In this document: piece by piece, positions 27,258 to 48,162 of the stretch
Numbering within the stretch: the first letter of the stretch is position 1
Layout: each line of letters starts with the position of its first letter
Assembly: GCA_903930565.1 (NCBI GenBank)
Contig: CAIYZC010000517.1
Location: 1 to 48,405, forward strand
Length of the DNA stretch: 48,405 nt
Origin: an uncultured Pedosphaera sp.
GTDB lineage: Bacteria > Verrucomicrobiota > Verrucomicrobiia > Limisphaerales > Pedosphaeraceae
Reading direction: 5' to 3'
The notes under the pieces: model-generated
The model's database searches: none
Told to the model about the DNA's origin: nothing
Seen by the model: only the letters and a program-made list of their open reading frames with translations
Position numbers and translations under genes: made by a program

Positions 27258-27800
27258 TTATTCCTCCACCAGTTCGATGCGCTGGCTGCCCGCCGAGGTG
27301 AGCAACTTGCGGGTTTCGGTTTCGGAATACTTGGGATCGGCAGTTTCGATCACGACAAAAAAGCGGTCGTGGCTCGCCAAGGCGAACCGACGGTGTTTGA
27401 GCAAGGGATGGTGCAGGCGAGGGAGGCGGTTTAACGCCAACATGCCGAACAGCGAACCAAAGGCGCCCAAAAGAATGGTCAGTTCGTAGCACGGGGGAAA
27501 CGCGCCATAAGGGCTGAACATCGGTTTGCCGCCGATCATGATGGGATAATCAACCGCGTTCATCCACCAGATCATCAACATGCCGCTGAAATAGCCCGTC
27601 AAACCGCCCGCGAAGGCGATGTAGCCGACTTTGGAATTGTCCAAGCCCATGGCTTGGTCCATGCCGTGCACCGGGAACGGGGTGTAAACATCCCATTTGC
27701 GGAAGCCGGCGTCGCGAACCATTTCGGCGGCGTGAATCGCGTCGGCGGGGGTCAGGAATTCGGCAATAATGCCGTACGGTTTGGAAGCGGTCGCAGCCAT
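27258..27800 (-). CDS. actD: Alternative complex III subunit ActD (DUF3341)
   Basis: The 180-residue protein carries the DUF3341 domain: PYGIIAEFLTPADAIHAAE, KWDVYTPFPVHGMDQAMGL, and two membrane helices (YIAFAGGLTGYFSGMLMIWWM and CYELTILLGAFGSLFGMLAL). The C-terminal soluble part contains HDRFFVVIE. ActD is a structural subunit without cofactors. Its ATG overlaps the stop of actC by one base (TAATG). Confidence 0.92.
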   Translation of the reverse strand: MAATASKPYGIIAEFLTPADAIHAAEMVRDAGFRKWDVYTPFPVHGMDQAMGLDNSKVGYIAFAGGLTGYFSGMLMIWWMNAVDYPIMIGGKPMFSPYGAFPPCYELTILLGAFGSLFGMLALNRLPRLHHPLLKHRRFALASHDRFFVVIETADPKYSETETRKLLTSAGSQRIELVEE

Positions 27801-29221
27801 TAGTGGTGCCCTCCGGATTTGGCGCCGCCCAAGGGATGGTGGGGATCGGCCTGCGGCGTGACCCCTTTAACCTCGGTGATGGCGATGATCGGCATAAAGC
27901 GAATGAACAACAGGAACAGCGTGAAGAACAGGCCGAAGGTGCCCATGTAGGTCGTGATATCCACCCAAGTAGGTTTGAAATAACCCCAGTTGGAAGGCAT
28001 GAAGTCACGGTGCAGGGAGATGACCACGATGACAAACCGTTCAAACCACATCCCGATGTTCACGAAGATGGAAAGGATGAAAACTATGAGCATGTTGCTG
28101 CGGATGCGCTTGAACCAGAAGCATTGCGGCACGATGACATTGCAGCCGATCATGACCCAATAACCCCAGGCGTAAGGACCCATGGCGCGGTTGATAAAGG
28201 CGTAGCGCTCGTAGGGATTGCCACTATACCAAGCGATAAAAAACTCCATGGCGTAGGCGTAGCCGACGATCGAACCGGTCGCCAACACCACCTTGCACAT
28301 CAACTCAACGTGGCGCACGGTGATGATATCCTCCAGTTTGAGGATGGTGCGCAAGGGGATCAGCAGGGAGAGCACCATGCCGAAACCTGAGAACACGGCG
28401 CCCGCCACAAAGTAAGGCGGGAAGATCGTGGTATGCCAACCGGGCAATTGGGACACCGAGAAGTCCATGGACACGATCGAATGGACGGACAGCACCAGCG
28501 GGGTGGACAAACCGGCCAAGATCAAATAAGCCTTCTCATAATTGCGCCAGTGGCGGTTGGAACCCGTCCAGCCGAGCGAAAACAAGCCATAGGCGAACTT
28601 GCGCAGTTTGGTCTTGGAGCGGTCCCGCATGACGGCCAAGTCGGGAATCAGGCCCATGAACCAAAACAGGGCGGAAACCGTAAAGTAAGTGGACACCGCA
28701 AACACGTCCCACATCAACGGGGAGCGGAAGTTGGGCCAAATCGAGTTCTGATTGGGCAGCGGGAACAACCACCAACCGAACCACATGCGTCCCACGTGAA
28801 TCAACGGAAAGATACCGGCGCACATGACCGCGAAGATGGTCATCGCTTCGGCGGCGCGATTGATGGAAGTGCGCCACTTTTGGCGGAGCAGGAACAAAAT
28901 CGCGGAGATCAGAGTACCGGCGTGACCGATACCGATCCACCACACGAAGTTGATGATCGCCCAGCCCCACATGACCGGATGACCAGGACCCCAAATGCCC
29001 ACACCGGTGGACAGGAGGTAAATGATCATCGCGCCCATGACACTCATGGCGATGACACTGGGCACGAAGGCGATCCACCACCAGAGGGGTGTCTTGCCTT
29101 CGGCCACGCCCGCAATGGCGTCGGAAATCCAGCCCAGACCGCGCTGGTTCAAAACCAGCGGCTCGCGTTCGAGCCCGGCCGGCGGACCTTTGATTTCTAC
29201 GTTGGCAATCACGTCAGCCAT
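27800..29221 (-). CDS. actC: Alternative complex III subunit ActC (NrfD-like quinol-binding subunit)
   Basis: The 473-residue NrfD/PsrC-like membrane protein has about ten helices. The N-terminal soluble stretch [20 protein letters not shown] is followed by typical helices ([85 protein letters not shown]). The WIGIGHAGT and GLIPDLA motifs lie in the region that binds quinol in ActC. The start overlaps the actB stop (TAATG). Confidence 0.94.
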
Positions 29222-32200
29222 TACTCGGCTCCTTTCTTGCCTGCATGCTCGGCGTGCGCGTGGGCTTCATTTCCGCTTTCTTCTTCCAATTTTCCGTTCT
29301 TGGCCTCGTATTCCTCCGTGCTGAACGGGGCGTCGTATTTGTCCGGCATGGCCGGGTTCGGGTTCCGCAAACGGGCGAGGTAAGTCGTCCGGGGTTTCGT
29401 ATTGAGGAAATCCAAAACCGAATAGTTGCGCTGCTGCTTTTTCAGGATGCTGACGGCGCTCTTGGGATCGGCCACGTTGCCGAACACAATCGCTTCCGCG
29501 GGGCAGGCCTGTTGGCAGGCGGTCTTGATCGTGCCATCCGGCACCGTGACATCACCGGTGTCCCGCGCTTTGACTTTTTGGGCGATTTTGGCGCCCTCGA
29601 TGCGCTGGAGGCAGTAGGTGCATTTTTCCATCACGCCGCGCATGCGCACCGTGACTTCCGGGTTCTTGACCAGCTTGAGCAGTTCCCATTCGTCCGCGGG
29701 ACGGGTGCCCAAGTCCGGGTTGCGCCACCAGCGCATGACGTCCAACTCGCCGTCCGTCTTGTGCAGCAGCGGGGTGGTGTACACCGGTCCCTTGAGTTGT
29801 TCCAAGGTGCGGCGGTTGTAATCGAAATAGTTGAAGCGGCGGACCTTGTATGGGCAGTTGTTGCTGCAATAACGGGTGCCGACGCACCGGTTATAGGTCA
29901 TCACGTTCAGGCCTTCCTGATCGTGGGAGGTCGCATTGACCGGGCAGACATTTTCGCAGGGGGCCGCTTCGCAATGCTGGCAGAGCATCGGCTGGTTCAC
30001 CACCTGGGGATCCTCCACCTTGCCGGTGAAATAGCGGTCGATGCGAATCCAATGCATCTCGCGATTGTTCGCGACCTGGTATTTCCCGACGATGGGGATG
30101 TTGTTCTCGCTCTGGCAGGCCACCATGCAGGTGGAGCAACCCACGCAGGCGCTCAGATCAATCGACATGCCCCATTGATGGAGGGCCGTCTTTCTGACCT
30201 CGTCCAAGGGGTTGGGATAGAGCGACTTAAGGTTTTCCCCGTCCTCCATGCCCGGCGGCGTTTCCATGTCGAACGCCTTGGCAAACCGGGGGTGCTTTTG
30301 AAATTCGGCGTGGGTCCCCTCGCGGATGATGGGGCGGCCTTCCATGCTCCAATGGTCCTGCGTGGTGGCCAAGTGATGCTTTTCGCCGCTGTTTTTCAGC
30401 GTGGCGCCGGTGGTGAAATGCAACGCCTTGGTAGTGCGCACCGAGTAGGCGTTGTAACCGGAGTTCAGGCCCACGCGGCCGGTCTTGCGGCGGCCGTAAC
30501 CCAAAGCCAAACCGATCACGTTGTCGGCCTGACCGGGCTGGGTCCAGAGCGGCCCTTCCACTTCCATGCCGTTGACCGTGATCTTCACCCATGGAACCAT
30601 CAATTGATTATTCTCGCGATTGATGACCACCAAACCCAAATCAGTCGCCGTCTTCTGACTGATCAAAATCGTGTTCTCCCACGTCATCTTGGTGATGGGA
30701 TCGGGGAGTTCCTGCATCCAGCCGTTGTTGTTGAAACGGCCGTCGTCCGCCTTGTAATCGCGGTGGAAAACGACTTCCAACTTGTCCTTGGCCGGAACCG
30801 TCACGGCCGGAGCCGCCGCCAAGCCTGCCGCCACGGCGTCCGTGGCCAAGGCCACGCTGACCGGGGCCGCCGCACTGTCGGCCAGGAAGCCGTCATGGAG
30901 GAATTTCTTCCACTTCTCTTCGTCGGTGCCGAAGGTTTCCCGCACGATTTCGTACGCGGTGATCTTGTCCAACCCGCCGATGCGGGCCAGCACTTCCAAT
31001 TCGGTCAAACCACCGAACAACGGCTCGATCAACGGTTGAACGGCCACCAAAGTGCCGTCGCTCGTCCGCGCGTCACCCCAGGACTCCAAGAAGTGTGCCT
31101 GCGGCAATTGCCAGCCGTTGGCGGGGGTGGTTTCGTCCTCGTAGTAACCGAGGCGCACCACGGTCTTGGCTTTCGCCTGGGCGGCTTCCCACTTCAAATC
31201 CGCCGGGGCGTCGTAGGCGGGATTGCCACCCAAGACCACCAAAGTTTCAACTTGACCGCCCGTCAAGGCTTGGGCCAATTCAGCAATGCCGCCGGCGCTG
31301 GGCGCGGGAGCATCCAAGAAGATGACCGTCTTGCCCAAGTTGCCCAAGGCGGCATTGATGGCGTAAGCCGCCAAATGCACGGCGAGGGGTTGGCGTTGAC
31401 CGGCCAGCACAAGGCTTTCGCCCTTCGCCGCCAGCAAATCCTTAGCGCATTCCGTCGCCCATTTGTTGAGGAACTTGGCGTCACCGGCGCGCACTTGCTC
31501 GCTCAGCGCGGCCACCGCTTTGGCGTCCACCAAGGCTTTGACCGCCGCCACCAGCTTGGCGTCGCCGCCCGCCTGGGTCAGCACCGCTTCCGCGAGCAAA
31601 CCGGCCATGACCGAGACGCCGGTCGCAGGCATGCGCAAACGATGATCGGCGTTCGCCCCGGTGAGGGTCATCAACGGCTCGATGGCATACAGCCGGCTCA
31701 TGGCCTGCCCCGGCGCGGTCACCCGGCGGCCCTTGGCAAAGCGGCGGATGTTGATGTGGGCGTTTTCCTCGGCGCCGATGAAATCACAATCCAAGGCGAC
31801 GACCACTTTTTTGGCTTCGTCGATCTTGAAATAAGGCGTCACCGGTTTGCCGGTGGCGGCCGTGGCGGCTTGGCGGTGGATGTCGAAATCCACGGCTTCG
31901 TGCCGGTACCACTTGGCCTGGGGCAGCTTGGCGGCAATCGCCTTTTCAATGCGTTCCCGGGAAGGGGAGGCCGTCTGCTCGGACAAAATCGCCAAGCCCT
32001 TGCCGCCGGTGGCGGCGAGCGCTTTGGACAAATCCCGCAAGGCCACCAAGGCGTCTTCCGCGGTCTTCGTGGTGCCGTTTTGCAGGAAACGAGTCGCGCG
32101 GTCGGGATCGTAAAGATTGAGAATCGCGGCCTGGGCGTAACGGTCCGTGGCGCCGTTGCTGTCCGGATGCTTATCGTTGCCTTCCAGCTTCACCGGCCGG

Positions 32201-32550
32201 CCGTCATGCGACTTGGCCACCAAAGGAATGGCCGTGCCGCGGGTGGGCATCGCCGTGGCGAAAAACCGCGCCATGCCGTGGACATAGCCCTCCGGCATCT
32301 TTTGAAAGGGGTAAATGTTCTCCACCGGCCGGCGGCAACCGGTCAAACCGAAGCCCGCCAACAGGAACGAGGCGGACATCAACTTCACGAAATGCCGGCG
32401 GGTGCTGGGATCGGTCAACTCGCTGGCACCGGCGGGAAATTCGCGCTCCGCCCAAGAGCGGAACTCGGGGGTGTCGGCCAACTGATCCAAACTGCGCCAA
32501 TACTTGGGGCCGGTCTCCGGCTCGGGACAGACGGGGGGAATGGTTTTCAT
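29221..32550 (-). CDS. actB: Alternative complex III subunit ActB (molybdopterin-oxidoreductase-like plus ferredoxin domains)
   Basis: The 1109-residue exported protein starts at the ATG at 32550, fixed by a four-base overlap (ATGA) with the actA stop. [22 protein letters not shown] leads to a Tat motif [11 protein letters not shown] and a lipobox-like FGLTGC. The B1 half (about 70-720) has the molybdopterin-oxidoreductase fold, which in ActB carries no molybdenum. The B2 half (about 800-1080) holds four cysteine clusters: [37 protein letters not shown] and CTYC with CQQACP, for three 4Fe-4S and one 3Fe-4S cluster in known complexes. Electrons pass through these to ActA and ActE. A His/Ala/Lys-rich tail ends the protein. 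Confidence 0.94.
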
Positions 32551-33200
32551 CGATGGCAAGTGGAGCAGTTTTGCAGGGATTCAACCTTCCAGTCGTGCAT
32601 GAATTTGGCTCCGTCGGCCCGTTGGCTTTCCTCGCTCTTCGGCTGCCAATCCAAGTCGGTGATTTTATCCAAGGGACGCAAATGGGCGGCGGGGTCGCGA
32701 TGGCAATCCAAGCAGAAGGTCATGTTCAGCGACTTAGCCTGGTGAACTTCATCCATCTTGTTGACCTGGCCATGACATTCCACGCAGCTCAGCCCGCGGT
32801 TGACATGCACGGAATGGTTGAAAAAGACGTAATCAGGGACCTTGTGGATTTGCACCCAATGGATCGGCTCCCCGCTTTGCGCGGATTCGCGGACCAAGGC
32901 CAGCTTGGGATCATCCTTGAGCACTTGGTTGTGGCAGTTCATGCACAAGGTGCTGGTGGGGATGTTGGAGTACCAGGACTTCTCCACCGCGTTGTGGCAG
33001 TAGCGGCAGTCCATGCCGAGTTGGTCCGCGTGGATGGCGTGGGAGAACGCCACCGGCTGCACGGGCATGTAGCCGACGTTGGCGTACTTGTTGGTACAAT
33101 AGTACCATACGCCCGCCGTCACTCCGGTGCCGCCGAGCAGCGCGCCGGTGATCATCATCAACGGCAACCGGTTCGTCCACTTGGGGAAGATGTCCGACAT
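32547..33200 (-). CDS. actA: Alternative complex III pentaheme cytochrome c ActA
   Basis: The 217-residue protein has one N-terminal membrane helix (LPLMMITGALLGGTGVTAGVW) and five CxxCH motifs: CRYCH, CMNCH, CVECH, CLDCH and CSTCH, the normal heme count for ActA. FSHAIHADQLGMDCRYCHN and FNHSVHVNRGLSCVECHG supply the His axial ligands as in NrfH/tetraheme relatives. It is the first gene of the respiratory operon that runs without a gap over 33 bases to the monoheme cytochrome at 22196. No strong ribosome-binding site is visible before its ATG. Confidence 0.94.
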   Translation of the reverse strand: MSDIFPKWTNRLPLMMITGALLGGTGVTAGVWYYCTNKYANVGYMPVQPVAFSHAIHADQLGMDCRYCHNAVEKSWYSNIPTSTLCMNCHNQVLKDDPKLALVRESAQSGEPIHWVQIHKVPDYVFFNHSVHVNRGLSCVECHGQVNKMDEVHQAKSLNMTFCLDCHRDPAAHLRPLDKITDLDWQPKSEESQRADGAKFMHDWKVESLQNCSTCHR

Positions 33201-37344: not shown

Positions 37345-37872
37345 TCAGCCTACCCGGCGGCCCAGAATGACCAAATCGTGCTCCCGGTCGCCGACCAGCG
37401 CGACGCGGGGCAGGTGGCCCCAGGTGGTGAAGCCGTGCCGCTCGAAGAGGCGAAGGCTGGGGCGGTTGGCGGCAAAGATGAGCGCCACAAGGCTGTGGCA
37501 CCGAAGGGACGGGGCGTGGGCGATGCAACGGCGCAACAACTCACTCCCCAAGCCGCAGCCGCGATCCGCGGGGCCGAGATAGATGCTCACTTCGCAAGTG
37601 CCATCATAGGCGGCGCGGCTATGGAAGGAGGAATAACTCAGCCAACCGGCGATCCGGCCCGCCGTTTCCGCAACCCAAATGGGCCGGCGGCCGGGGGAGT
37701 GCTGATCGAACCAAGGCCGGCGCTGGGCGACGGAAACGGGTTCAAGATCCGCCGTGACCACGCGGGAGGGAATGATGGAATTGTAGATTTCCACCATGGC
37801 GGGCAGGTCGTCCAAGGTGGCGTCGCGGAAGGTCCAAGGCAGCGGCTTCGATGGCGGCGGGGCGGAGTTCAT
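37345..37872 (-). CDS. GNAT family N-acetyltransferase (phosphinothricin acetyltransferase-like)
   Basis: The 175-residue protein has a GNAT fold: WTFRDATLDDLPAMVEIYNSII, IAGWLSYSSFHSRAAYDGTCEVSIYL, the acetyl-CoA-binding loop DRGCGLGSELLRRCI (R-G-x-G-x-G/A type) and FERHGFTTWGHLPRVALVGDREHDLVIL. The layout is that of the phosphinothricin/methionine sulfoximine acetyltransferase group, whose members acetylate small amines, but the substrate here is unknown. Its ATG overlaps the stop of the FtsK/EccC-like gene (TGATG), so the two are translationally coupled, which is unusual and suggests it may modify a component or substrate of that system. It converges with the secreted gene at 36271. Confidence 0.88.
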   Translation of the reverse strand: MNSAPPPSKPLPWTFRDATLDDLPAMVEIYNSIIPSRVVTADLEPVSVAQRRPWFDQHSPGRRPIWVAETAGRIAGWLSYSSFHSRAAYDGTCEVSIYLGPADRGCGLGSELLRRCIAHAPSLRCHSLVALIFAANRPSLRLFERHGFTTWGHLPRVALVGDREHDLVILGRRVG

Positions 37873-40800
37873 CAGCGGGCGGGGAAGGCGTGTTGGGCCA
37901 ACCAGTCGGCGGGGGGTACGGCGTAGGGGCGGAAGACTTCCAAATAGCCTTGTTGCTCGTTGTAGAACAAGGCGCGATGCAGTCCGAGGTCGTTGGCTTT
38001 GGGGCTGTCGATGAGGCTCGCGGAATCGTTTGCGCTCATCTGGAACACGACGCGCATCTCAAACTCGCTGAACGCCTTCTTGCTCAGGAAGCGATTGACG
38101 TTGTTGTAAGTGTCGAACGAAGCCACGACGTGACAGCCCTGCGTGGCGCCTTCGCAGATAATTTGGTTGAGCAGAGCGGCGGGGTTCGGCGGCGCGTCGG
38201 GATCGGGCGTGCCGAAGCCAAAGTCCTCCTCGTAACGCAGCTTGGGGTGCCGCGGGAGTCCGTGGAAGAACAGGAAGGTGGGCACGGGGGCGGACCCGCC
38301 CTCCTCAGCGGCCTGGCATTGCAAATCCGCCGCCAAGCGGGCCAGCACTTCGGGCAATTCGCCACCTTTGGCGACCGTGACCGGTTGGCCCAGACGCCGG
38401 AGAACGCCGTCCAAGTAATCGCGGGCGGGGGTGCCCGACGGCGTGCCGTGGCAGAACACCAAGCGCACGCCCCCCGGCGGATACTGCGCCGCCAACCCCA
38501 CGAGGGCGACGGTGAAAATGGCCAGGATCGCCTCGTCGCGTTGGCCCACGAGGAGCAAATGGTTGCCGGCCTGGCGGTGGAACAAGGCTTCGGTCGGTCC
38601 CTTGATGGAATTGGGCGCGCCGAGCCAAATCCGCGGCTCGAGCGGAGCGGTCGCCGGGGTTCGCGCCAAGGCCGCGGCCAGGAGCGGGTTTTCCGCGACA
38701 TCGGCCGGGGCGTCGCCCTCGAACACAATCGGCTTGGGGTAGGTCAACCCGGTGCGCTGCGCCTGGGTAATAACTTGGTCCAGATAGCGGTCGCGGATTT
38801 CGTCCGAGAGCCACACCGTTTGGAACGGGCTGTTGCCGGCGAGGGCGCCGGCGGCATCGTTGTAAATGCCCTCGCCCGGCCGCGACAGGAGCCGCGGAGC
38901 CGGGTTGCTGTCATCCATGATCAAATAGGCGTCGGCCTCGTTGCATTGGAGCGCGATGCGCACGACCATTTGGCCCATGGTGGCGCGGGCCACGGTGTAG
39001 GCGCCGCCGAGAGTCTGCGAGCCGAGCAACACGTGAATGCCGAAGGCGCGCCCCTGCCGGACAATGCGGTCCAGCAAAACGGAGGCGGACTGGCTGATTT
39101 TGTCATCCTCGACGAACAATTCCTGAAATTCGTCGATCATCAACAAGGTGCGCGGCATCGGTCCCTGGCCGCCGGCCCGGAAGAAGCCGGGGAGATCCTG
39201 CACGCCCAGTTCGCGGAACTTTTCCCCGCGCCGCTGAAGTTCCTCATCGACGCGCGCGAGCACGCTCAAACCGAACTCGCGGTCGCTCGCAATGGCGACC
39301 ACGCGGGCGTGGGGCAGCGCGCGGGCGCCGTAACACTTGAACTCCACGCCCTTTTTGAAGTCCACAAGGTAGAACTCCACCTGGGCCGGGCTGCACCACA
39401 GCGCGAGGTTGGTGATGATGACATGGAACAACGTGGACTTGCCGGAACCGGTTTTGCCCGCGATCAAGCCGTGCTGACGCGTGCCCTTGCCGAGCGCCAG
39501 GTATTGGAGCTTGGTCGCGCCGGTGCGGCCGATGGGCACGCGCAATTCCGCGCTCGTGTCCAGGCTCCAGATTTCCGCCGGGGTCGGCACCACCTGGGCG
39601 AAGGGCACTTCCACCCGGCCGGAATCCTTGCTGGCGCGGCCCACGCGGTGGACCAATTCCGCGGCCCACTCCGCGCCGGGCGGCGCGTCGGGCAGAAACG
39701 TGACCCCCGGCAGTGCGAGGGCGGTGAGCTGCGGTTCCGCGCCCTTCCAACCCACGACGGCTCCGGCGCGGCGCAGTTCCTCCGCGGGCGGTTCCGGCGC
39801 GGCGCCGGGCGCGACGGGCCGGCGGTCCCAATGGATCAGCGTGTAAACGCCGCAGCGCGCGCCGTTGGCGGCGATGCTCTCCAACCGGCGCAGGGCGGCC
39901 TCGCTGAAGTTGACCGGAAAATCCGCCACGACCAGGAAATGAAACTTCTCCGCGATTTCGCCCGCCTGTTCGTTGAACTCCGCGATGCTGGCGTAGTCAT
40001 TGCGCAGGTACATCTGGATGACCTTCTCCATGTGCGCGCTGAGTTCGGCGAGTTTCTCCTCGATCTGGGCGGGCTGGGTCCAGATGCGGTAATTGATCAG
40101 TTGCTCCTCGTGGTCGGCGAGGTGCATGACGCCCGCGAAATTCTGGCCGAGGCCGACGGGGTCCAGGATGGTGAATTGCACCCGGCCGGACGGGGTGACG
40201 GTGAGCAGGCGCAGGATCACGCTGTTCAACAGGTCCGCGGCGCGCTCGCGCTGCGCGGCGGGCGCCTCCACCAGCAACGAGCCGGCCTCGGGATACGTGA
40301 GCAGCAGCGGGATTTCCCACTTCGCCGGCCCGGGCAAGGCGAGGCGGGGATCGCGGGGCAAGACACCGGCCAGGCGCGCCACATCGATTTCCAAGCGACC
40401 GAAGGGCACCGCGGAAGCGAATTGCGCGGGCGGGCGCCAGGCGGACCATCCGGCCGCGCCCCATGGCGGGAACAGGGCGCGCGCACGCTCCCCGGCCGCC
40501 ACGCAAGCGGCGTGCAACGGGGTGATCGTCGCGCGCCATTCCGCCGCCAAACTCTCCCAGCGCACCGCCGCATCCGCGGCCCAGCGCGCCTCCAAGGCGG
40601 TCCCTTCGCTTTCGAGGGCCCGGCGCCGTTCGTCCGCCGCGCCGGTCAACCCGGCCAGCAGCCGTTCATGCGCGTCGTTCAACCGCGCCTGTGCCACCCG
40701 CTGCGCCGCCTCGCAATCCGCCGCTACGCGCATGGTCTTTTCGTCCGCCCGCATCCGGCAGGCCACGCGTTCCGTGGAGGCCTGGTCCAGCGCGGCCTTC

Positions 40801-41753
40801 AATTCCTCGTCGATCGCGCCGCTCAAGGCCGCGAAGCGTTCGCGGGCCCGCGCGTTCGCATCGCGGAAAGCGGTTTCATTGAGGTCGTGCGCGGCCGCGC
40901 ACAAGCCGCGGCACCGGGCCAGACCGTTGACGATTTGCCCCGCCAAGGCCGTGCCGCGCGCGCGCCCCAGCCACTGCAACAGCCCCATGAGCACGAACCC
41001 GCCCACCGCGACCCCACCCGCCGTCGGCCAGTCCAGCCGGCCCGTCCCGGCGTGCAGGGCGAGGCCGCCCAGAAGGACCCCCAACGGAGTGAGACTCAAC
41101 AACCCCCACAGCACCATCAAGCGAACCGCCACGGTGGTCAACCGGCCGCGAAACGCGTGCGTGTCCGCCAAAGTTTGGGCGGCTTGGGCCTGCGCGCGGG
41201 CGAGTTGCTCGTGGTGGTCGCCCGGCGCGGCGGGCGGGGCCGGAGTGACCGCGGGATCCAGCCGGCGCACGAACGCACCAAACGGTCGCAACGCGCGGAG
41301 CGCGGCGGCTTCCACCCCCGCCAGCACCGTTCGCTCCGCCTGCAAGCGGCCAACGAACTCCGCGTGCGCGGCGGCGGCTTCCGCCAGCGCCGCCTCCCGC
41401 TCGCGCTCGGCCTGCAACATGCGTTTTTGGAGCTGGAACTTCTTGGCGCCCAATTGCCGCTCGACGCGGGCGATGCCCTGCTCCTTGCTCGTGCCGCGGG
41501 CGCGCGCGATCCAAGCCTTGCGGCGCTGATACCTGGCGGCCAGGCCTTGGTCGGCCGCCTGCTTGGCGGCCAGGGCTTCGGCCATCAACCGTTCGCTCTC
41601 CGCGGTCCCCTCGGCCAGAGTTTGCTCCCGGCGGCGGCGTTCCTGCGCCAGGCGGGTCAAACCACCCGTCGCCAAGTCCTGCTCGCGCGCGGCAAAGGTT
41701 TCCACCGCCGCGCGCAACTCGCGGACCAACGTCACCGCCCCCGTCACGCCCAT
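37872..41753 (-). CDS. FtsK/SpoIIIE-EccC-like membrane ATPase with three ATPase modules
   Basis: The 1293-residue protein starts at 41753. Residues 1-205 are Ala/Glu/Arg-rich coiled coil; two membrane helices follow (about 211-232, LMVLWGLLSLTPLGVLLGGL, and 244-262, VAVGGFVLMGLLQWLG). A second coiled coil (265-440) leads to three FtsK-like modules. D1 (about 470-650) has lost Walker A (VEAPAAQRERAAD). D2 (about 740-1000) has an intact GLIAGKTGSGKSTLFHVII (about 765) and Walker B LLMIDEFQELF (about 868). D3 (about 1040-1270) has GNHLLLVGQRDEAI in place of Walker A. Two helices plus tandem ATPases with one or more degenerate is the architecture of EccC/EssC of type VII secretion. No FHA domain is present. 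It follows three small helical genes and ends overlapping the GNAT gene. Confidence 0.85.
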   Translation of the reverse strand: MGVTGAVTLVRELRAAVETFAAREQDLATGGLTRLAQERRRREQTLAEGTAESERLMAEALAAKQAADQGLAARYQRRKAWIARARGTSKEQGIARVERQLGAKKFQLQKRMLQAEREREAALAEAAAAHAEFVGRLQAERTVLAGVEAAALRALRPFGAFVRRLDPAVTPAPPAAPGDHHEQLARAQAQAAQTLADTHAFRGRLTTVAVRLMVLWGLLSLTPLGVLLGGLALHAGTGRLDWPTAGGVAVGGFVLMGLLQWLGRARGTALAGQIVNGLARCRGLCAAAHDLNETAFRDANARARERFAALSGAIDEELKAALDQASTERVACRMRADEKTMRVAADCEAAQRVAQARLNDAHERLLAGLTGAADERRRALESEGTALEARWAADAAVRWESLAAEWRATITPLHAACVAAGERARALFPPWGAAGWSAWRPPAQFASAVPFGRLEIDVARLAGVLPRDPRLALPGPAKWEIPLLLTYPEAGSLLVEAPAAQRERAADLLNSVILRLLTVTPSGRVQFTILDPVGLGQNFAGVMHLADHEEQLINYRIWTQPAQIEEKLAELSAHMEKVIQMYLRNDYASIAEFNEQAGEIAEKFHFLVVADFPVNFSEAALRRLESIAANGARCGVYTLIHWDRRPVAPGAAPEPPAEELRRAGAVVGWKGAEPQLTALALPGVTFLPDAPPGAEWAAELVHRVGRASKDSGRVEVPFAQVVPTPAEIWSLDTSAELRVPIGRTGATKLQYLALGKGTRQHGLIAGKTGSGKSTLFHVIITNLALWCSPAQVEFYLVDFKKGVEFKCYGARALPHARVVAIASDREFGLSVLARVDEELQRRGEKFRELGVQDLPGFFRAGGQGPMPRTLLMIDEFQELFVEDDKISQSASVLLDRIVRQGRAFGIHVLLGSQTLGGAYTVARATMGQMVVRIALQCNEADAYLIMDDSNPAPRLLSRPGEGIYNDAAGALAGNSPFQTVWLSDEIRDRYLDQVITQAQRTGLTYPKPIVFEGDAPADVAENPLLAAALARTPATAPLEPRIWLGAPNSIKGPTEALFHRQAGNHLLLVGQRDEAILAIFTVALVGLAAQYPPGGVRLVFCHGTPSGTPARDYLDGVLRRLGQPVTVAKGGELPEVLARLAADLQCQAAEEGGSAPVPTFLFFHGLPRHPKLRYEEDFGFGTPDPDAPPNPAALLNQIICEGATQGCHVVASFDTYNNVNRFLSKKAFSEFEMRVVFQMSANDSASLIDSPKANDLGLHRALFYNEQQGYLEVFRPYAVPPADWLAQHAFPAR

Positions 41754-41760
41754 GAAATGC

Positions 41761-41973
41761 TTATTCACAATCTTTTCGAACTTTGGCGAGCACCTTGTCC
41801 AGTTGCTCGATGACCGCCACCGCCTTGTCCACACTGCCGAACAATTCGGCCAGGTAATGGAGCTCAAACTCCGCCGCCTTGGCATCGCGCCACACCATCC
41901 GCGTTTGCCCCCAATCCGCCGCGAGTTCGCGGGTGATGGCCGTCAGCCGGCTGCCGTTGCCCGCCAAGCTCAT
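41761..41973 (-). CDS. 70-residue W-x-D helical protein (WXG100-like), ATPase-associated
   Basis: The protein is almost wholly helical on inspection, with two amphipathic halves around W28-R-D30 and F36 (MVWRDAKAAEFELHYLAELF). The spacing W-x-D-x5-F is identical to that in the protein encoded at 42556-42828, and the motif sits at the turn where WXG100 proteins have W-x-G. Its ATG overlaps the stop of the coiled-coil gene before it (ATGA), and the ATPase gene starts eight bases after it. No signal peptide and only one Cys (at the penultimate position). I infer an Esx-like hairpin; sequence is too short to prove it. Confidence 0.65.
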   Translation of the reverse strand: MSLAGNGSRLTAITRELAADWGQTRMVWRDAKAAEFELHYLAELFGSVDKAVAVIEQLDKVLAKVRKDCE

Positions 41974-42545
41974 GCGGCGCCCTCCCCCACCCCGGTGTCC
42001 GCGGGCGTGGGCACGACCGCCGGCGCCGCCGCGTCGGAGGCGGGAGGCGGGACCGTTCCCCCGGTGGCGGGGCGGACGGCTTCCGTGTAGGCGTCCAGCG
42101 TGGCCGCGGCCTGCGCGAGGTAGGCGATGCCCCGCGGCAGATCGCTCGCCAGCACGGTGTCGAGTTTTTCCAATTGCTTCACCAGCGGCAGCGTGCGGTG
42201 CTCGAAATCGCGGAGCCAGTGCTTGATCTGGCGCAGCTTGCCTTCCGCCTCCCCGAAGGCTTCGCGCGCCTTGCGCACGGCCATGAGTTCCGCGCTGGTT
42301 TCGTCCCGCAAATTGCCCAGGCGCGCGCCGAACAACGCCTGCTCGGCGTCCTCCAACCGGCGGCGGCGGCGCTTCAATTGGTCCTCCCAATGCCGCCGCT
42401 GATCGTGCTCCAACCACTGCTTCGTGCGCTGCACCGTCGCGGCCACCTCCGCCACCGTGGGCCGGGCTTTGTTGAGATAAACAATCAGCTTGGCGCGGAA
42501 ATCGGCGAGGGCTTCGACGGACGCGATATGAGCTTGCGGAGCCAT
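41970..42545 (-). CDS. 191-residue coiled-coil protein, ATPase-associated
   Basis: Residues 1-155 are helical and highly charged (RTKQWLEHDQRRHWEDQLKR, LEDAEQALFGARLGNLRDE), and the last 35 are a Pro/Ala/Val-rich flexible tail. It also carries a W-x-D (W53-E-D55), here without a Phe at the matching position. No membrane helix or signal peptide is present and I recognise no family. It sits between the two small W-x-D genes, ten bases after the first and overlapping the second by four. It could be a chaperone, a larger secreted helical substrate, or an adaptor of the ATPase. Confidence 0.65.
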   Translation of the reverse strand: MAPQAHIASVEALADFRAKLIVYLNKARPTVAEVAATVQRTKQWLEHDQRRHWEDQLKRRRRRLEDAEQALFGARLGNLRDETSAELMAVRKAREAFGEAEGKLRQIKHWLRDFEHRTLPLVKQLEKLDTVLASDLPRGIAYLAQAAATLDAYTEAVRPATGGTVPPPASDAAAPAVVPTPADTGVGEGAA

Positions 42546-42555
42546 GGCGGGGCGC

Positions 42556-42828
42556 TCAGTGCTGCTTGAGATATTCCTCGATGCGCTGCGCCTTGCGCAA
42601 CAGGTAGGGGGCGTGCTGCTGCGAAACCTCCACGAATTTGCGCAAGGTTTTGAAAGTTTGCTTGAACTCCTCGGCGAATTTCGCGTGCTCCTGGTCGTTC
42701 CAAGTGTCGCCCAAAGCGGAAAACCGCGCCTGCAGGGCGCTCAGCCGGTTTTGGAGGTCGGCGTTGAACCGCTTCAGTTCCTCGGCGAACCGCCGCACTT
42801 CCTCGGGATCCATCACTGCCTGGGGCAT
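42556..42828 (-). CDS. 90-residue WXG100-like protein (W-x-D variant)
   Basis: The ATG at 42828 is chosen over a TTG at 42882, which lacks support. The protein is two long helices: MDPEEVRRFAEELKRFNADL through ARFSALGDTW and AKFAEEFKQTFKTLRKFVEV to the end, with W43-N-D45 and F51 at the turn. This matches the size, helical-hairpin pattern and central Trp of WXG100 (Esx) proteins, with Asp in place of Gly. The family's C-terminal Y-x3-D/E secretion signal is not evident. It is first in an operon with the coiled-coil protein, the second W-x-D protein and the EccC-like ATPase, the usual partner of Esx proteins. Confidence 0.7.
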   Translation of the reverse strand: MPQAVMDPEEVRRFAEELKRFNADLQNRLSALQARFSALGDTWNDQEHAKFAEEFKQTFKTLRKFVEVSQQHAPYLLRKAQRIEEYLKQH

Positions 42829-42966: not shown

Positions 42967-45900
42967 CTAACGCGGCAGTGTGGATCGCCCTGCGGGCAGC
43001 AGACGCAGTTCGCGCAGATCCATCAAGGAGCCTTCAGCCCCGGCTGCCGGCCGCAGTTCCAGCGTTTGGCGGCCCGCCGCCAGATGCAGTTGGCCGAAGG
43101 CCCGGTGTTGGTAATCATCCCAGGACGCGGTGGCGGGAATGGCGGCGGTCAATTCCGCGGTGCCCGAGGTCAGCACCCAGCGGTTGGACGCGCCGCCGGG
43201 TTGGAGCGCCCAATCCAGCCAAACAGCATAGTCCCCGGCCTGCGGAACGTTCACGGTCCAAACCACCCGATCGTTCGGACTGTTCCAATAGCCGAGGTTT
43301 CCGTACTGCGCTTCAAACACCAAGGTGTCGCCCATGACACGGCCCTGGGCGGCCCGCAAGCGGAAGGCGCCATCCGCCGCCGGCGACACCAGCACGGGAT
43401 GGTTTCCCGGAAACACCTTGGCAGGAGTGGTGCCGCGCAGAAAAGCCACCAGATCGGCCAAAGCTTGGGGATCCAGGGCGGTCTCCAGCCCTTCGGGCAT
43501 CAGCGAACGATCCAGACTCGCCAAGTCCCGCAGGTCGGACCGCAGAAACACGACCTCCATGCCGCCCGCCTGCCGCAGGGTGACGCTGTTGGCGGATTCC
43601 GCGGCCAGGATGCCGATGGTTTCATTGCCGGAGCGATCCACGGCGCGGTAGGCGGTGTAGCGGGTCTCAAAGGTTTGATTGGGGTCCAGAATGGCGGTGA
43701 CCAAATAATCCACAGGTTTGAAGGCCACACTGCCGAGATCCGGCCCCACCGGCCGCCCTTCGTCATTCACTTGGTGGCAGGGAGTGCAGGCCTGGCGGAA
43801 ATAGACCACGCCCCGGGCGACATCGCCGGTGAGCTCCCCCACCCCGGCGTAGCGTTGCAACACCGCGCCGCGGTCGCGACCCACAGCCGCAAACAATTGC
43901 AGGGCGCGTTGGCGGAGCTTTGGCCGGGGATATTCCCGCAGCCGTTGCTGCGCCACGGGGCCGATGGCGCCGGGAGAAATCTTCCCCGCCTCCAAGGCGG
44001 CCAGGAGAACTTCGACACTCTCCATCCGCCCCAGCAAAGCGGCCAGAATGCCTTCGCGGAGCTCCGGACCACCGGTCGACCAAGCGGCGACCAACGCGTC
44101 GGCGGCGCGCGGTTCGGCCCGCCCCGCCAAAACACCCAGCGCCGCCGTGCGCAAGGCCGGGGGCGTCGCCGGAGTCAACAAACCCGCCAGCGTCGCCCAG
44201 TCCGGGGCTTCCCCGCCGAAGCCCAAGCCCAGCAATTGAATCGCGGGCAGGCGTTCCGCCTCGGTCGCCGTCGCATCCGCCGCCGTGATGCGGGCTTGGG
44301 TGAGCACGTCCCCGAAGCGGCGGGCGAGATTGCCGAGTTGGGGATGGTCGGCTTCAAATTGGGCCGGAGTCCGGCCCTGGCGGTGCAGGCCGTCCAGCCA
44401 CGCGGCCAACAGCGCGAATTGCCAGGGTTCATAGCGCCGGGCCTCGTCCTGCCGGGCCGCCGCGAGGCAGCGGACCAAGGCCGCGTCCTGCCCCAGCGCC
44501 AGGGCGAACCCGGCGAGCGGGGGCAGAATCGCCTGCCGGGCGGCCGCATCACCCTCCTGCAAGACGGTCAAGACCAGGCGATCCAAGTGCTTGGGCGCGG
44601 AGGCGTACACGGCGGTAAGCACGTCCGGCGCGCCGAGGTTTTGCAGGGCCAATTCCGCCAACACGCGCGAGGCTTCGCCGGGGGGGACTTCGCCCAAAGT
44701 GAACGCCAGTTGGCAGCGCACGCGCAGGGACGGGTCGTTGGTCAGGCGCACGGCGGCGGCGCGAAGGCCGGGCTCGGACTGGTCGGCCCACCGCGGGCCC
44801 GCCAGGCGCAAGGCGAGTTCGCGCACGGAGGGATGCGGATCGCGCAGGGCCGCCGTGAGCACGGGCGGGGTGGCGGCTTGCAAACCATCCAGCGTGGCGA
44901 GGGCCTGGAGCCGGGTCACGGCCCGGGGGCTCGTGCGAACCAGGGCGTTGAGCGGGGGGACGGACGACGCATCATTCGCCGCGACCAACAACCGTTGCGC
45001 GGTGTCGCGTTGCCAGCCATTGGCACTGTCCAACGCCGCCACCAGGCCGGCGGTGTCCAGGCGGTCCAGCCGCGGCATCGGGCGCAGCACCACGTTGGTG
45101 GGATAAATCCGGTAAATCCGCCCCTTGTCCGCCCCCGCCCGCACGTCCAGGCTGCGTTGCGAGTCCTCGGGAATCCACTCCGGATGCTCGATGACCAGGC
45201 GGTACATGTCCGCCACGTACAAGGCGCCGTCCGGCCCGGTTTTGGTCATGGTGGGACGGAACCAATTGTCGGTGGAGGCGAGGAATTCGTTGGTTTGCTC
45301 ATCGGGCGCGCGCCGACTGGTGAAGCTCACGCCGGCCGCGACCAAATCTTCCCGGTGGATCAGGTTGTGGACCGGCTCGCTCACGAAATAACTGTGCGCG
45401 AACCCGGGGCCAAACAACTCGTCGCGGTAGGGCGTCACGCTGTTGGCCGAAGTGAGGTGATTGGCCCCGCTGGCGGGATCGTTGAAGCGCTGGGCCAACC
45501 GGCTGGCGGGAAACACCCGGGTGGCGCTTTCGTAATCGGGCAGCAGATGTTTGCTCGTGCGCACGGCGAGCTGGGGGTTGCGCGCCAAATATTCCTCGGG
45601 CGGATAGTAGTGCCACGCGGGCGAGGCGTTCTCAATGCCGAACCAGTTCCCCCAATCGTCGCGGTGGGTGCCGTACTGGGTCTGGCCGGCCTGGGTTTCA
45701 AAGGCGCCGGTGGCGGGGCGGAAGCGGAAATCCCGGCCCCGGATGTCCACGGTCTGGCCGGTGAGCACGGAACGGATCACCCCCGCGCTGTTTCCATTCG
45801 CGCCGTGGAGCCAGTTGTCCAAACCGTAGTCAAAACCGTTCGCCCGGTGCTGCTGGTTGCCTTCGCCGAAGCCGGTGAACAACTTCACCCGTTTATCGGC

Positions 45901-48162
45901 CCGGCCGTCGCCATCCGTGTCCTCCACGTAAAAGATCTCCGGCGGATCGCAGACGATCACCCCCTTGCCCCAGGCGATGATGCCGGTGGGAAACGGCAGG
46001 CCGTCGAGGAAGACGGTGGACCGGTCGTAATGACCGTCGCCATGGGTGGATTCGAGGAAACGCACGACCCCGCCGGGCTTGCCTTTGCCATCGGTGCCCA
46101 AGGGATAATCCCCCATCTCGACCACCCACAACTTCCCATCGGCGCCCCAGTCGAAGGCGATGGGGCTTTTCGTCATCGGTTCGGCGGCCACCAATTCCAC
46201 TTGGAACCCCGGCCGGGGGCGCATCGCGGCGAGAGCCTCGGCGGGCGAAAGCGCGGGCGGCAAGCCACCGGCCATCAATTCCTTGAAGGAACGCCGCTCC
46301 ACCAGATCGGGCTTGGCCGCCGTGTCCTCGTTTTGCACCCACAAACTTTGCGCATGGAACCACGCGCCGTTGTCCGGGTGCGGCCCGGCGCGCACGACCA
46401 TGGGGATTTCGTCCGCCCGCTCCCCGCGCCGGCCGGACTGCACCGCGCGGCTCCAGCCGGGTGGGAAGCCGAGCATGGCGCGAGGCACGAACAGATGGAG
46501 CGAATACTCCCGCGCATTGGAAAACAACACGTCCGGGTGGCCGTCGCCGTTCACATCCACAAACCGCAATCCTTGGTCGCGTCCATCCGCATCCACCAAC
46601 CGCGCCGCGCCGGGCAGCGCGTAGGGCAACCGCCGCCAACTCCCCCGCTCCGCGGACCACGCAAACACCGCGTTTTGCGACTCATTGCCCACGATCAATT
46701 CCCCGATGCCGTCCCCGTCCACATCGCGCAGCCGGACGCCGCGATCCCGCCCCCCGCGGGTGGTCAGAATGGGTTCGCCGTCGAGTTCCAGTCCGCGCAG
46801 CAACTCCGGCTGTGCCACCCACTCGCGGCCGTCGAAGCGCCACGCCCCGGCGGTGGTTTCATTGCGCAACAACGCGATGGGCCGGCCATCGGGCGTCACC
46901 ACCCCGAACCGCACGCCCGCCTCGTGGCGTCGCCCCGCGGCGTCCGTGCGCACCAAGGGCGTGGAGAAACTCGTTTCCCGCCACCGGCCCGCGCCCGGCT
47001 CCCAAATCCGCGTCACCAACCCGCGCTCATTCCCGATCACCACATCCAAGAACCCGTCGCCATCCAGGTCCAGCAAGCGCACCCCGTTGTCCCCGCCATC
47101 GGCCGCGCGCAACGGGCGGCCGGCGAGCAAGGCGCGGTCGAGCCGCTCCTGGGCCTCGCGAAAATTGAGAAACTTGACGCGTTTGCCGTATTTGCGATCC
47201 GCATAGTCCACCAACCCCGCCAGTTCCCGGCTGTCCATCCAACCGTGGGGGTGAAAAATCATGGTGAACACGCCCTGCTTGCGCACGGTGGCATCCAAGT
47301 TCGACCGCCAATCCGCCACTGTCACGGCGTTCGAAGCGCCGTGCAGGTGGAAGGCCTCCCAATCGCTGGGCACCGCCGCCGGGAATTCCCACCCCAATCC
47401 GCCCGCGAGGACATAGGGGTAGGGATAATTCTCGATCGTCGTCTGAAACGCCGGGAAGGGCAAATACTTGCGGTATTTCTCCCGTCCGTCGGCATCCCGC
47501 ACCCACTCCCGGGGCAACGCTGGATCGGCGTCGGTGGGGATGTTCATGACCGACGAATCGATTGTCAAAAACTCCCCGTGCGGTCCGGGCATGTTGAACA
47601 ACTCCGCGAACAGCCGGGGGCTGGGACTGTTGATCGAGTCGCAGCACGGCGTCCGGAACGCCACCGCATGATTCCCCGGAATGGCGTTCAGGATGGAAAT
47701 CCCCCCGTAGAACGTATCGGCCGCGTTGGTAAAGGCGACTTTCCCCAGGATGGGGCACGGATGCGACAATGTGTGCACCTCCAGGGAAAGTCCCGCCTGG
47801 AGCCACGCTTGGAACTGCGGGTCCCCGGCCTCCAGGGCATTGCAGAAAATGCTCACCGGCCGGCGGCCGTCGATCTTGGCCAATCGATCGAGGATGGGTT
47901 CCAGGAAACTCACGTACTTGCCCGGCGTGCGCAAATCATCGATGGCCAGGATGACCACCGCCTCCACCCCGGGTTCACCAATCCATTGCGGGGTGGTCAA
48001 GCGCGGGAAATTCAATCCCGGATAAAACGGATCGGTTTCCGTCAGGTAGGCCAACCGATTACCGGCGGCTTCACCGGGGTCCGCCATGGCAGGCGCGGCG
48101 AGCCCGAGCAGACCGCCAATCCAGCACAAGAGTCCCAACCAGAGCGAAGGAATTGGTTTCAT
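42967..48162 (-). CDS. Giant secreted polysaccharide deacetylase/FG-GAP/PVC heme-binding dehydrogenase fusion
   Basis: The 1731-residue exported protein has a signal peptide (LLCWIGGLLGLAAPAMA). Residues 50-330 look like a NodB-type polysaccharide deacetylase: VVILAIDDLRTPG, LEVHTLSHPCPIL (metal His), FRTPCCDS and TMIFHPHGW. Three FG-GAP repeats follow at about 355, 475 and 525 (DLDGDGFLDVVIGN, DVDGDGIGELIVGN, DVNGDGHPDVLFSN). The PVC 'membrane-bound dehydrogenase' beta-propeller spans about 640-1030 (GFQVELVAAEPMTKSPIAFD, VEDTDGDGRADKRV). HEAT-like repeats run to about 1400. A heme-binding domain with CTPCHQ at about 1458 and DPNQTFETRYTAY follows, then a C-terminal beta-sandwich, probably carbohydrate-binding. 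Substrate is unknown. It is monocistronic, ending 138 bases before the W-x-D operon. Confidence 0.88.
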   Translation of the reverse strand: MKPIPSLWLGLLCWIGGLLGLAAPAMADPGEAAGNRLAYLTETDPFYPGLNFPRLTTPQWIGEPGVEAVVILAIDDLRTPGKYVSFLEPILDRLAKIDGRRPVSIFCNALEAGDPQFQAWLQAGLSLEVHTLSHPCPILGKVAFTNAADTFYGGISILNAIPGNHAVAFRTPCCDSINSPSPRLFAELFNMPGPHGEFLTIDSSVMNIPTDADPALPREWVRDADGREKYRKYLPFPAFQTTIENYPYPYVLAGGLGWEFPAAVPSDWEAFHLHGASNAVTVADWRSNLDATVRKQGVFTMIFHPHGWMDSRELAGLVDYADRKYGKRVKFLNFREAQERLDRALLAGRPLRAADGGDNGVRLLDLDGDGFLDVVIGNERGLVTRIWEPGAGRWRETSFSTPLVRTDAAGRRHEAGVRFGVVTPDGRPIALLRNETTAGAWRFDGREWVAQPELLRGLELDGEPILTTRGGRDRGVRLRDVDGDGIGELIVGNESQNAVFAWSAERGSWRRLPYALPGAARLVDADGRDQGLRFVDVNGDGHPDVLFSNAREYSLHLFVPRAMLGFPPGWSRAVQSGRRGERADEIPMVVRAGPHPDNGAWFHAQSLWVQNEDTAAKPDLVERRSFKELMAGGLPPALSPAEALAAMRPRPGFQVELVAAEPMTKSPIAFDWGADGKLWVVEMGDYPLGTDGKGKPGGVVRFLESTHGDGHYDRSTVFLDGLPFPTGIIAWGKGVIVCDPPEIFYVEDTDGDGRADKRVKLFTGFGEGNQQHRANGFDYGLDNWLHGANGNSAGVIRSVLTGQTVDIRGRDFRFRPATGAFETQAGQTQYGTHRDDWGNWFGIENASPAWHYYPPEEYLARNPQLAVRTSKHLLPDYESATRVFPASRLAQRFNDPASGANHLTSANSVTPYRDELFGPGFAHSYFVSEPVHNLIHREDLVAAGVSFTSRRAPDEQTNEFLASTDNWFRPTMTKTGPDGALYVADMYRLVIEHPEWIPEDSQRSLDVRAGADKGRIYRIYPTNVVLRPMPRLDRLDTAGLVAALDSANGWQRDTAQRLLVAANDASSVPPLNALVRTSPRAVTRLQALATLDGLQAATPPVLTAALRDPHPSVRELALRLAGPRWADQSEPGLRAAAVRLTNDPSLRVRCQLAFTLGEVPPGEASRVLAELALQNLGAPDVLTAVYASAPKHLDRLVLTVLQEGDAAARQAILPPLAGFALALGQDAALVRCLAAARQDEARRYEPWQFALLAAWLDGLHRQGRTPAQFEADHPQLGNLARRFGDVLTQARITAADATATEAERLPAIQLLGLGFGGEAPDWATLAGLLTPATPPALRTAALGVLAGRAEPRAADALVAAWSTGGPELREGILAALLGRMESVEVLLAALEAGKISPGAIGPVAQQRLREYPRPKLRQRALQLFAAVGRDRGAVLQRYAGVGELTGDVARGVVYFRQACTPCHQVNDEGRPVGPDLGSVAFKPVDYLVTAILDPNQTFETRYTAYRAVDRSGNETIGILAAESANSVTLRQAGGMEVVFLRSDLRDLASLDRSLMPEGLETALDPQALADLVAFLRGTTPAKVFPGNHPVLVSPAADGAFRLRAAQGRVMGDTLVFEAQYGNLGYWNSPNDRVVWTVNVPQAGDYAVWLDWALQPGGASNRWVLTSGTAELTAAIPATASWDDYQHRAFGQLHLAAGRQTLELRPAAGAEGSLMDLRELRLLPAGRSTLPR

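What the first reader, a model, noticed from the sequence alone, without database searches (positions are those of the whole stretch)
41761..42828. Two tiny proteins share W-x-D-x5-F where WXG100 proteins have W-x-G
W43-N-D45...F51 in the protein at 42556-42828 and W28-R-D30...F36 in the one at 41761-41973 have the same spacing. The protein between them also has W-E-D. Replacement of the turn Gly by Asp in more than one member points to a coherent subfamily that standard WXG100 models could miss, and to possible heterodimer formation as in EsxA/EsxB.
Basis: seen in the sequence. Interest (0 to 1): 0.65.

Follow-up and report, generated by a model that had tools for sequence, protein, structure and literature searches.

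The report
Paired W-x-D hairpins beside an FtsK motor
Two tiny helix-hairpin proteins that share an invariant Trp-x-Asp bend, a long coiled-coil protein and an FtsK/EccC-like motor form a four-gene, export-like module that recurs in about one in ten sampled planctomycetes and verrucomicrobia; it is a lineage variant of a stripped-down type VII-like system already noted in the literature, but its second hairpin protein is missed by standard family models.

Summary
W43-N-D45-x5-F51 (protein at 42556-42828) and W28-R-D30-x5-F36 (41761-41973) are present. W and D are invariant in 69/69 and 53/53 homologues; F in 69/69 and 52/53. The middle protein's W-E-D is chance (D in 1 of 30). The genes are part of a conserved minus-strand operon: P0001 (WXG100) – P0002 (long helical hairpin) – P0003 (short hairpin) – P0004 (FtsK/EccC-like ATPase). 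The pair is coherent and co-inherited, even where unlinked. But Pfam WXG100 finds P0001 above cut-off; only P0003 is missed by both Pfam and NCBIfam. The W-x-D bend was already described for H. pylori HP0062 ('WRD'), a homodimer. The kind of system (WXG100 plus three-domain FtsK-like ATPase with only the middle domain active) was reported in 2012 for planctomycetes and verrucomicrobia. New here: P0003 as a constant second W-x-D member, P0002 related to the N-terminal half of a two-part Rhodococcus protein but lacking the second part, and a transmembrane hairpin in the ATPase. Most likely a minimal T7SS-like export module. Export and a P0001:P0003 heterodimer are untested.

The parts
42556..42828 (-). 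P0001, 90-aa WXG100-family hairpin with W-N-D in place of W-x-G
   Evidence: PF06013 42.7 bits, cut-off 27.3; best PDB relative HP0062; W43/D45 invariant in 69 homologues
42676..42702 (-). W43-N-D45-x5-F51 motif of P0001
41970..42545 (-). P0002, 191-aa long helical hairpin (helices 3-77 and 84-157) with a disordered Pro/Ala-rich tail; no toxin domain
   Evidence: AlphaFold2 pLDDT 83; no Pfam/NCBIfam family; related to the N-terminal half of a 314-aa Rhodococcus plasmid protein, HHalign 90.4%, E 1.4e-6
41761..41973 (-). P0003, 70-aa short WXG100-like hairpin with W-R-D at the bend; overlaps the P0002 stop by 4 bases
   Evidence: AlphaFold2 pLDDT 93, helices 3-27 and 31-69; Z 8.7 to HP0062 and 9.1 to EsxB; HHalign to P0001 family 94.9%
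41866..41892 (-). W28-R-D30-x5-F36 motif of P0003
37872..41753 (-). P0004, about 1293-aa FtsK/SpoIIIE, EccC-like ATPase: N-terminal coiled coil, membrane segment(s), three ATPase-like domains with one Walker A
   Evidence: PF01580 115 bits, TIGR03924 EccCa 114 bits, below that model's cut-off; single P-loop
40956..41132 (-). Hydrophobic hairpin of P0004 (about residues 212-270 of P0004 as translated); one segment passes the hydropathy threshold in this protein, two in most relatives
39435..39458 (-). Walker A (GKTGSGKS) of the middle ATPase domain, the only one in P0004

Best explanation
The locus is a minimal, T7SS-like export module in a Gram-negative (verrucomicrobial) envelope. P0004 is an EccC/EssC-like motor anchored in the inner membrane by a transmembrane hairpin, with ATP hydrolysis only in its middle domain. 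P0001 is a W-x-D WXG100 protein that folds like HP0062 and probably acts as a homodimer. P0002 is the long helical-hairpin carrier or substrate and P0003 a short W-x-D hairpin that binds it, as PE binds PPE or as Lap1/Lap2 bind LXG domains. The W-x-D bend is the conserved half of the signal that docks these hairpins on the motor, which then exports P0002 and/or P0001. Shown: the operon, its co-inheritance, the motif, P0003's WXG100-like predicted fold and relatedness, the single Walker A, and P0002's relation to the N-terminal half of a two-part protein in a plasmid copy. Inferred: membrane anchoring (hydropathy only), complex formation, docking by W-x-D, and export.
For: Four-gene order P0001-P0002-P0003-P0004 conserved in Limisphaerales, other Verrucomicrobiota and Planctomycetota; no other gene family recurs widely at these loci. 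Presence and absence of P0001 and P0003 match in 20 related genomes, 13 with both and 7 without; P0002 follows the same pattern in the 13 genomes searched. Where P0001 has left the operon or the operon looked incomplete, P0003 is still in the genome in 8 of 9 cases, always with W-x-D. P0003 fold and homology. Operon copies in other phyla put a larger protein with a C-terminal part in the P0002 position: a WHH/colicin-DNase-type nuclease next to an SMI1/KNR4-family protein in a Helicobacter plasmid and a 314-aa two-part protein in a Rhodococcus plasmid, to which P0002 aligns over 137 columns (reversed control 0.2%). The published D2-only EssC-like/WXG100 operons are predicted to secrete (PMC3482391; PMC11090510).
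Against: No toxin domain in any P0002 homologue of the PVC loci, so no obvious effector. No T7SSb accessory EssB/YukC or YukD in 13 related genomes, with Bacillus subtilis positive. No outer-membrane partner recurs at the loci. The C-terminal YxxxD/E export motif is absent (0 of 69 P0001, 1 of 53 P0003). No secretion of HP0062 or relatives is reported in the passages read.
Confidence: 0.55

Rival explanations
1. Not a secretion system: a membrane-tethered ATPase complex for stress response or defence, in which the hairpins are intracellular adaptors that gather the motor, as proposed around TerY-P and CoCoNuT operons.
For: Relatives of P0001 and P0004 lie beside VWA, PP2C, kinase, CARF and TerD genes; the CoCoNuT paper notes WXG100/EssC-like genes there and suggests a different mechanism because those ATPases lack transmembrane domains. 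No effector in the PVC module.
Against: The four-gene PVC loci carry no recurring VWA, kinase or nuclease neighbours, and their ATPases have a membrane hairpin that the TerY-P-associated type lacks.
Confidence: 0.27
2. One reading: P0001 and P0003 form an EsxA/EsxB-like heterodimer that is itself the exported product.
For: Both are WXG100-like with the same bend motif and are co-inherited, even when unlinked.
Against: HP0062, the closest solved relative, is a homodimer (PMC3397514). P0001 is far more conserved than P0003. P0003 sits with P0002 rather than P0001 when the operon splits. One genome, G367, has P0001 and a P0004-like ATPase but no P0003 found.
Confidence: 0.15
3. The shared W-x-D-x5-F is a coincidence in two unrelated coiled coils.
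For: The motif is short; the W-E-D in P0002 shows that such coincidences occur.
Against: W and D invariant in both families, profile and fold similarity.
Confidence: 0.01

Closest known systems
Solo-WXG systems with a YueA-like ATPase of three HerA/FtsK domains, only the middle one active (Zhang et al. 2012, PMC3482391, Table 1 footnote 6)
   Same: WXG100 gene plus three-domain FtsK-like ATPase with a single Walker A in the middle; planctomycetes and verrucomicrobia are named there.
   Different: Here the WXG protein is not solo: a second hairpin (P0003) and a long hairpin (P0002) are constant parts, and the ATPase has a transmembrane hairpin.
H. pylori HP0062/HP0066 (PDB 3fx7, 2gts)
   Same: Helix-hairpin-helix with W-R-D-x5-F at the bend; FtsK/SpoIIIE gene in the cluster.
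   Different: HP0062 comes from a cluster reported to hold an HNH/ENDO VII nuclease; none is in the PVC module.
[quoted passage not shown] example Caballeronia plasmid pSBC2-5, L087)
   Same: EssC homologue with only D2 active and an N-terminal coiled coil; two WXG100-like proteins; a coiled-coil protein in the middle.
   Different: There the coiled coil is fused to a nuclease, one small hairpin lacks the motif, and no transmembrane domain is present; homology of P0003 to those small proteins is not supported.
T7SSb LXG effector with Lap1 (DUF3130) and Lap2 (DUF3958) targeting factors
   Same: Two small WXG100-like hairpins with a long helical export domain, feeding an EssC-type ATPase.
   Different: No Pfam match to DUF3130, none to DUF3958 above cut-off, no toxin half, no EssB/YukD; an analogy of layout, not tested homology.

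Membership tests
WXG100 superfamily (P0001) | Match to PF06013 above the curated cut-off | tested here: met
   42.7 bits against 27.3; not met for NCBIfam TIGR03930, 33.7 against 44.85
WXG100 superfamily (P0001) | W-x-G in the hairpin bend | tested here: not met
   W-x-D in 69 of 69 homologues; the same change in the accepted relative HP0062, so this marks the subgroup. P0001 is filed as a W-x-D subgroup of WXG100 on the Pfam match, not as a canonical W-x-G protein
WXG100 superfamily (P0003) | Match to PF06013 above the curated cut-off | tested here: not met
   No hit; 7 of 42 family members hit, best E 7e-4. P0003 is therefore called WXG100-like and related, not filed in the Pfam family
WXG100 superfamily (P0003) | Two-helix hairpin with the Trp motif at the bend | tested here: met
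   Helices 3-27 and 31-69, W28-R-D30 at the break, pLDDT 93; Z 9.1 EsxB, 8.7 HP0062 (a de novo bundle reaches 8.3, so fold alone is weak); profile relation E 4.8e-8
Minimal WXG + middle-active FtsK systems (PMC3482391) | Three FtsK-like domains, only the middle one with Walker A | tested here: met
   One GKTGSGKS, at residues 770-777, in P0004 and one P-loop in each homologue scanned; the outer domains judged by position and sequence reading only
Minimal WXG + middle-active FtsK systems (PMC3482391) | WXG gene linked to the ATPase | tested here: met
   58 loci
T7SSa/T7SSb proper | Accessory membrane parts EssB/YukC and YukD (T7SSb) | tested here: not met
   None in 13 related genomes; Bacillus subtilis control positive
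T7SSa/T7SSb proper | EccB (T7SSa) | tested here: inconclusive
   No hit, but no control genome rang either
T7SSa/T7SSb proper | C-terminal YxxxD/E export signal | tested here: not met
   0 of 69 and 1 of 53
T7SSa/T7SSb proper | ATPase-dependent secretion of WXG100 proteins | not testable with these tools
   needs cell fractionation
EsxA/EsxB-type heterodimer | 1:1 complex of the two hairpins | not testable with these tools
   structure jobs fold single chains; both jobs used

The most novel reading that the evidence does not exclude
A PVC-superphylum-specific, membrane-anchored T7SS-like machine for a diderm envelope that exports a toxin-free structural carrier (P0002) with two W-x-D hairpins as dedicated targeting factors, used for envelope housekeeping rather than for toxin delivery.
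Probability: 0.2. Interest if true: 0.75.

Novelty: new variant of a known kind. Interest (0 to 1): 0.42.

Why it matters
Type VII-like secretion is studied almost only in Gram-positive bacteria. A compact four-gene version, whose WXG100 protein is found in about 12% of sampled Planctomycetota and 6% of sampled Verrucomicrobiota genomes, with no toxin and a probably membrane-anchored motor, gives a small system in which to ask what an EccC-like motor does in a cell with an outer membrane and what the W-x-G/W-x-D bend is for. Annotation also gains: P0003 and P0002 match no named family at present, and the W-x-D pair is a practical marker.

Tried and rejected
P0002's W-E-D as a third member: rejected, Asp in 1 of 30. 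P0002 fold search: only generic coiled-coil hairpins (SMC arms, YscO and others), Z up to 11.6, inconclusive. P0003 Foldseek: best hits are Esx proteins but E about 2, not significant alone; VIA-align gives Esx chains among the best but a de novo bundle within 1 Z. First P0001-P0003 profile comparison with shallow alignments was inconclusive (44.8%); broader alignments gave 94.9%. P0003 as homologue of the small genes in the TerY-P/CoCoNuT-type operons: not supported against reversed controls. P0002 as homologue of the nuclease-fused coiled coils in those operons: weak only (23%, reversed 0.2%). Phage records: no P0001 relative. PADLOC: only generic ATPase hits to P0004.

Full report
Observation. 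The two small proteins are real open reading frames on the minus strand. P0001 (42556-42828) has W43-N-D45-x5-F51 and P0003 (41761-41973) has W28-R-D30-x5-F36. Shuffling each sequence gives the motif in about 0.3% of cases each. Across homologues W and D never vary: 69/69 in P0001 and 53/53 in P0003. The Phe is present in 69/69 and 52/53 (an overlapping set of 54 P0001 sequences has one Tyr). The residue between W and D is free: mostly Gln or Arg in P0001, and Arg, Lys, His or Asn in P0003. P0002's W-E-D is not conserved and drops out.

Anatomy. The genes run P0001, P0002, P0003, P0004 on the minus strand. The P0002 stop and P0003 start overlap by four bases, and the other gaps are 10 and 7 bases. 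P0004 (37872-41753) is an FtsK/SpoIIIE protein nearest to EccC/EssC but far under their equivalog cut-offs. It has one Walker A, in the middle domain. Its N-terminal part is a coiled coil followed by a hydrophobic hairpin; one segment passes the threshold here, two in most relatives. P0002 is modelled as two antiparallel helices of about 75 residues plus a disordered tail. P0003 is modelled at pLDDT 93 as helices 3-27 and 31-69 with W-R-D exactly at the break.

Are the two small proteins related? P0001 passes PF06013 and its best solved relative is HP0062, E 9e-18 with a profile. P0003 has no family hit by itself. Profile against profile, the two families align over 59 columns with W-x-D in register, probability 94.9 and E 4.8e-8. 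A P0003 profile finds a P0001 protein at E 1.4e-5, and P0001 profiles find several P0003 proteins weakly. Structural alignment puts P0003 closest to EsxB, EsxEF and HP0062 at 1.4-1.5 angstrom over 68-69 residues, although simple hairpins make that weak evidence alone. I conclude that P0003 is a short WXG100-like protein that Pfam and NCBIfam do not recognise.

Distribution and co-inheritance. An alignment of P0001 finds a match in 14 of 240 Verrucomicrobiota genomes and 30 of 246 Planctomycetota genomes. In 20 relatives of the window's genome, P0001 and P0003 are both present in the same 13 and both absent from the same 7, apart from one weak P0003 match inside a 698-residue frame. P0002 follows the same pattern in the 13 genomes searched. 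In nine Planctomycetota genomes chosen because the operon looked broken or incomplete near P0001, P0003 was still found in eight. In several of these it lay elsewhere in the genome, next to P0002 or P0004. Among 58 loci with P0001 and P0004 no further gene family is shared widely, so the module is self-contained.

Relatives outside the PVC group. Plasmid copies in Caballeronia, Helicobacter, Rhodococcus and Deinococcus carry W-Q-D, W-G-D, W-K-D and W-Q-D in their larger hairpin; the Rhodococcus and Deinococcus operons also have a second protein with W-R-D or W-N-D. The middle position holds a bigger protein there: a coiled coil with a WHH/colicin-DNase-type nuclease next to an SMI1/KNR4-family protein in Helicobacter, a 436-aa coiled-coil protein in Caballeronia, and a 314-aa two-part protein in Rhodococcus whose second part matches no Pfam family. 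P0002 aligns to the N-terminal half of the last one (90.4%, E 1.4e-6, 137 columns; reversed control 0.2%). In the PVC loci P0002 always ends soon after the helical hairpin. P0002 is therefore best read as the export-side half of a cargo protein, or a carrier, without a toxin.

Mechanism. By analogy to LXG effectors with Lap1/Lap2 (PMC9600955) and to PE-PPE pairs (described in the same paper), I propose that P0003 and perhaps P0001 bind P0002 and present it to P0004, with the W-x-D bend as the conserved docking feature. Complex formation, docking and export are inference. Against a standard T7SS stand the missing EssB/YukC and YukD, the missing YxxxD/E motif and the different active domain of the motor. 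The main rival is an intracellular adaptor role in stress response or defence, as suggested by TerY-P, CARF and TerD neighbours of relatives; no such neighbours recur in the four-gene PVC loci.

What was known. HP0062 was described as having WRD in place of WXG at the hairpin bend, with an FtsK/SpoIIIE gene in its cluster (PMC3397514). HP0062/HP0066 were called part of a WXG100 secretion system (PMC4978471). Zhang et al. 2012 listed solo WXG domains with a middle-active three-domain ATPase in planctomycetes, verrucomicrobia and others as mobile T7SS versions (PMC3482391). The CoCoNuT paper described two WXG100 proteins, one without the motif, with an EssC-like ATPase lacking transmembrane domains (PMC11090510). 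I found no paper on the four-gene PVC version in the open library searched, which is not proof that none exists.

Verdict. New variant of a known kind.

Noticed in passing
window 37345-37872 (-): A GNAT acetyltransferase starts on the last base of the P0004 stop codon, as if translationally coupled, but is not shared by the relatives' loci.
   Followed up: partly
window 37851-41813 (+): A 1320-aa open frame lies antisense to P0004; relatives show the same kind of mirror frame, so it is most likely a high-GC shadow ORF and not a gene.
   Followed up: partly
window 42967-48162 (-): 1731-aa DUF7133 protein with FG-GAP, HEAT and a CBM35-like end upstream of the operon; not conserved at relatives' loci.
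   Followed up: partly
L108, L109, L110, L112, L113: In some Planctomycetota P0001 stands alone while P0003 is elsewhere in the genome, with P0002 beside it in three of the five; the operon has split but its parts are kept.
   Followed up: partly
L088:9408-13810: Helicobacter plasmid operon: W-G-D WXG protein, WHH-type nuclease with coiled-coil N-terminus, SMI1/KNR4-family protein, small helical protein, FtsK; a likely toxin-immunity cargo in the P0002 position.
   Followed up: partly
P0003 C-terminus, window 41764-41769: An almost invariant Cys at the penultimate position of P0003 (50 of 51) has no explanation; it could make a disulfide or another covalent or metal link.
   Followed up: no
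window 27800-32559 (-): NrfD-type membrane protein and 4Fe-4S dicluster protein side by side, resembling an alternative complex III or polysulfide-reductase-type cluster.
   Followed up: no
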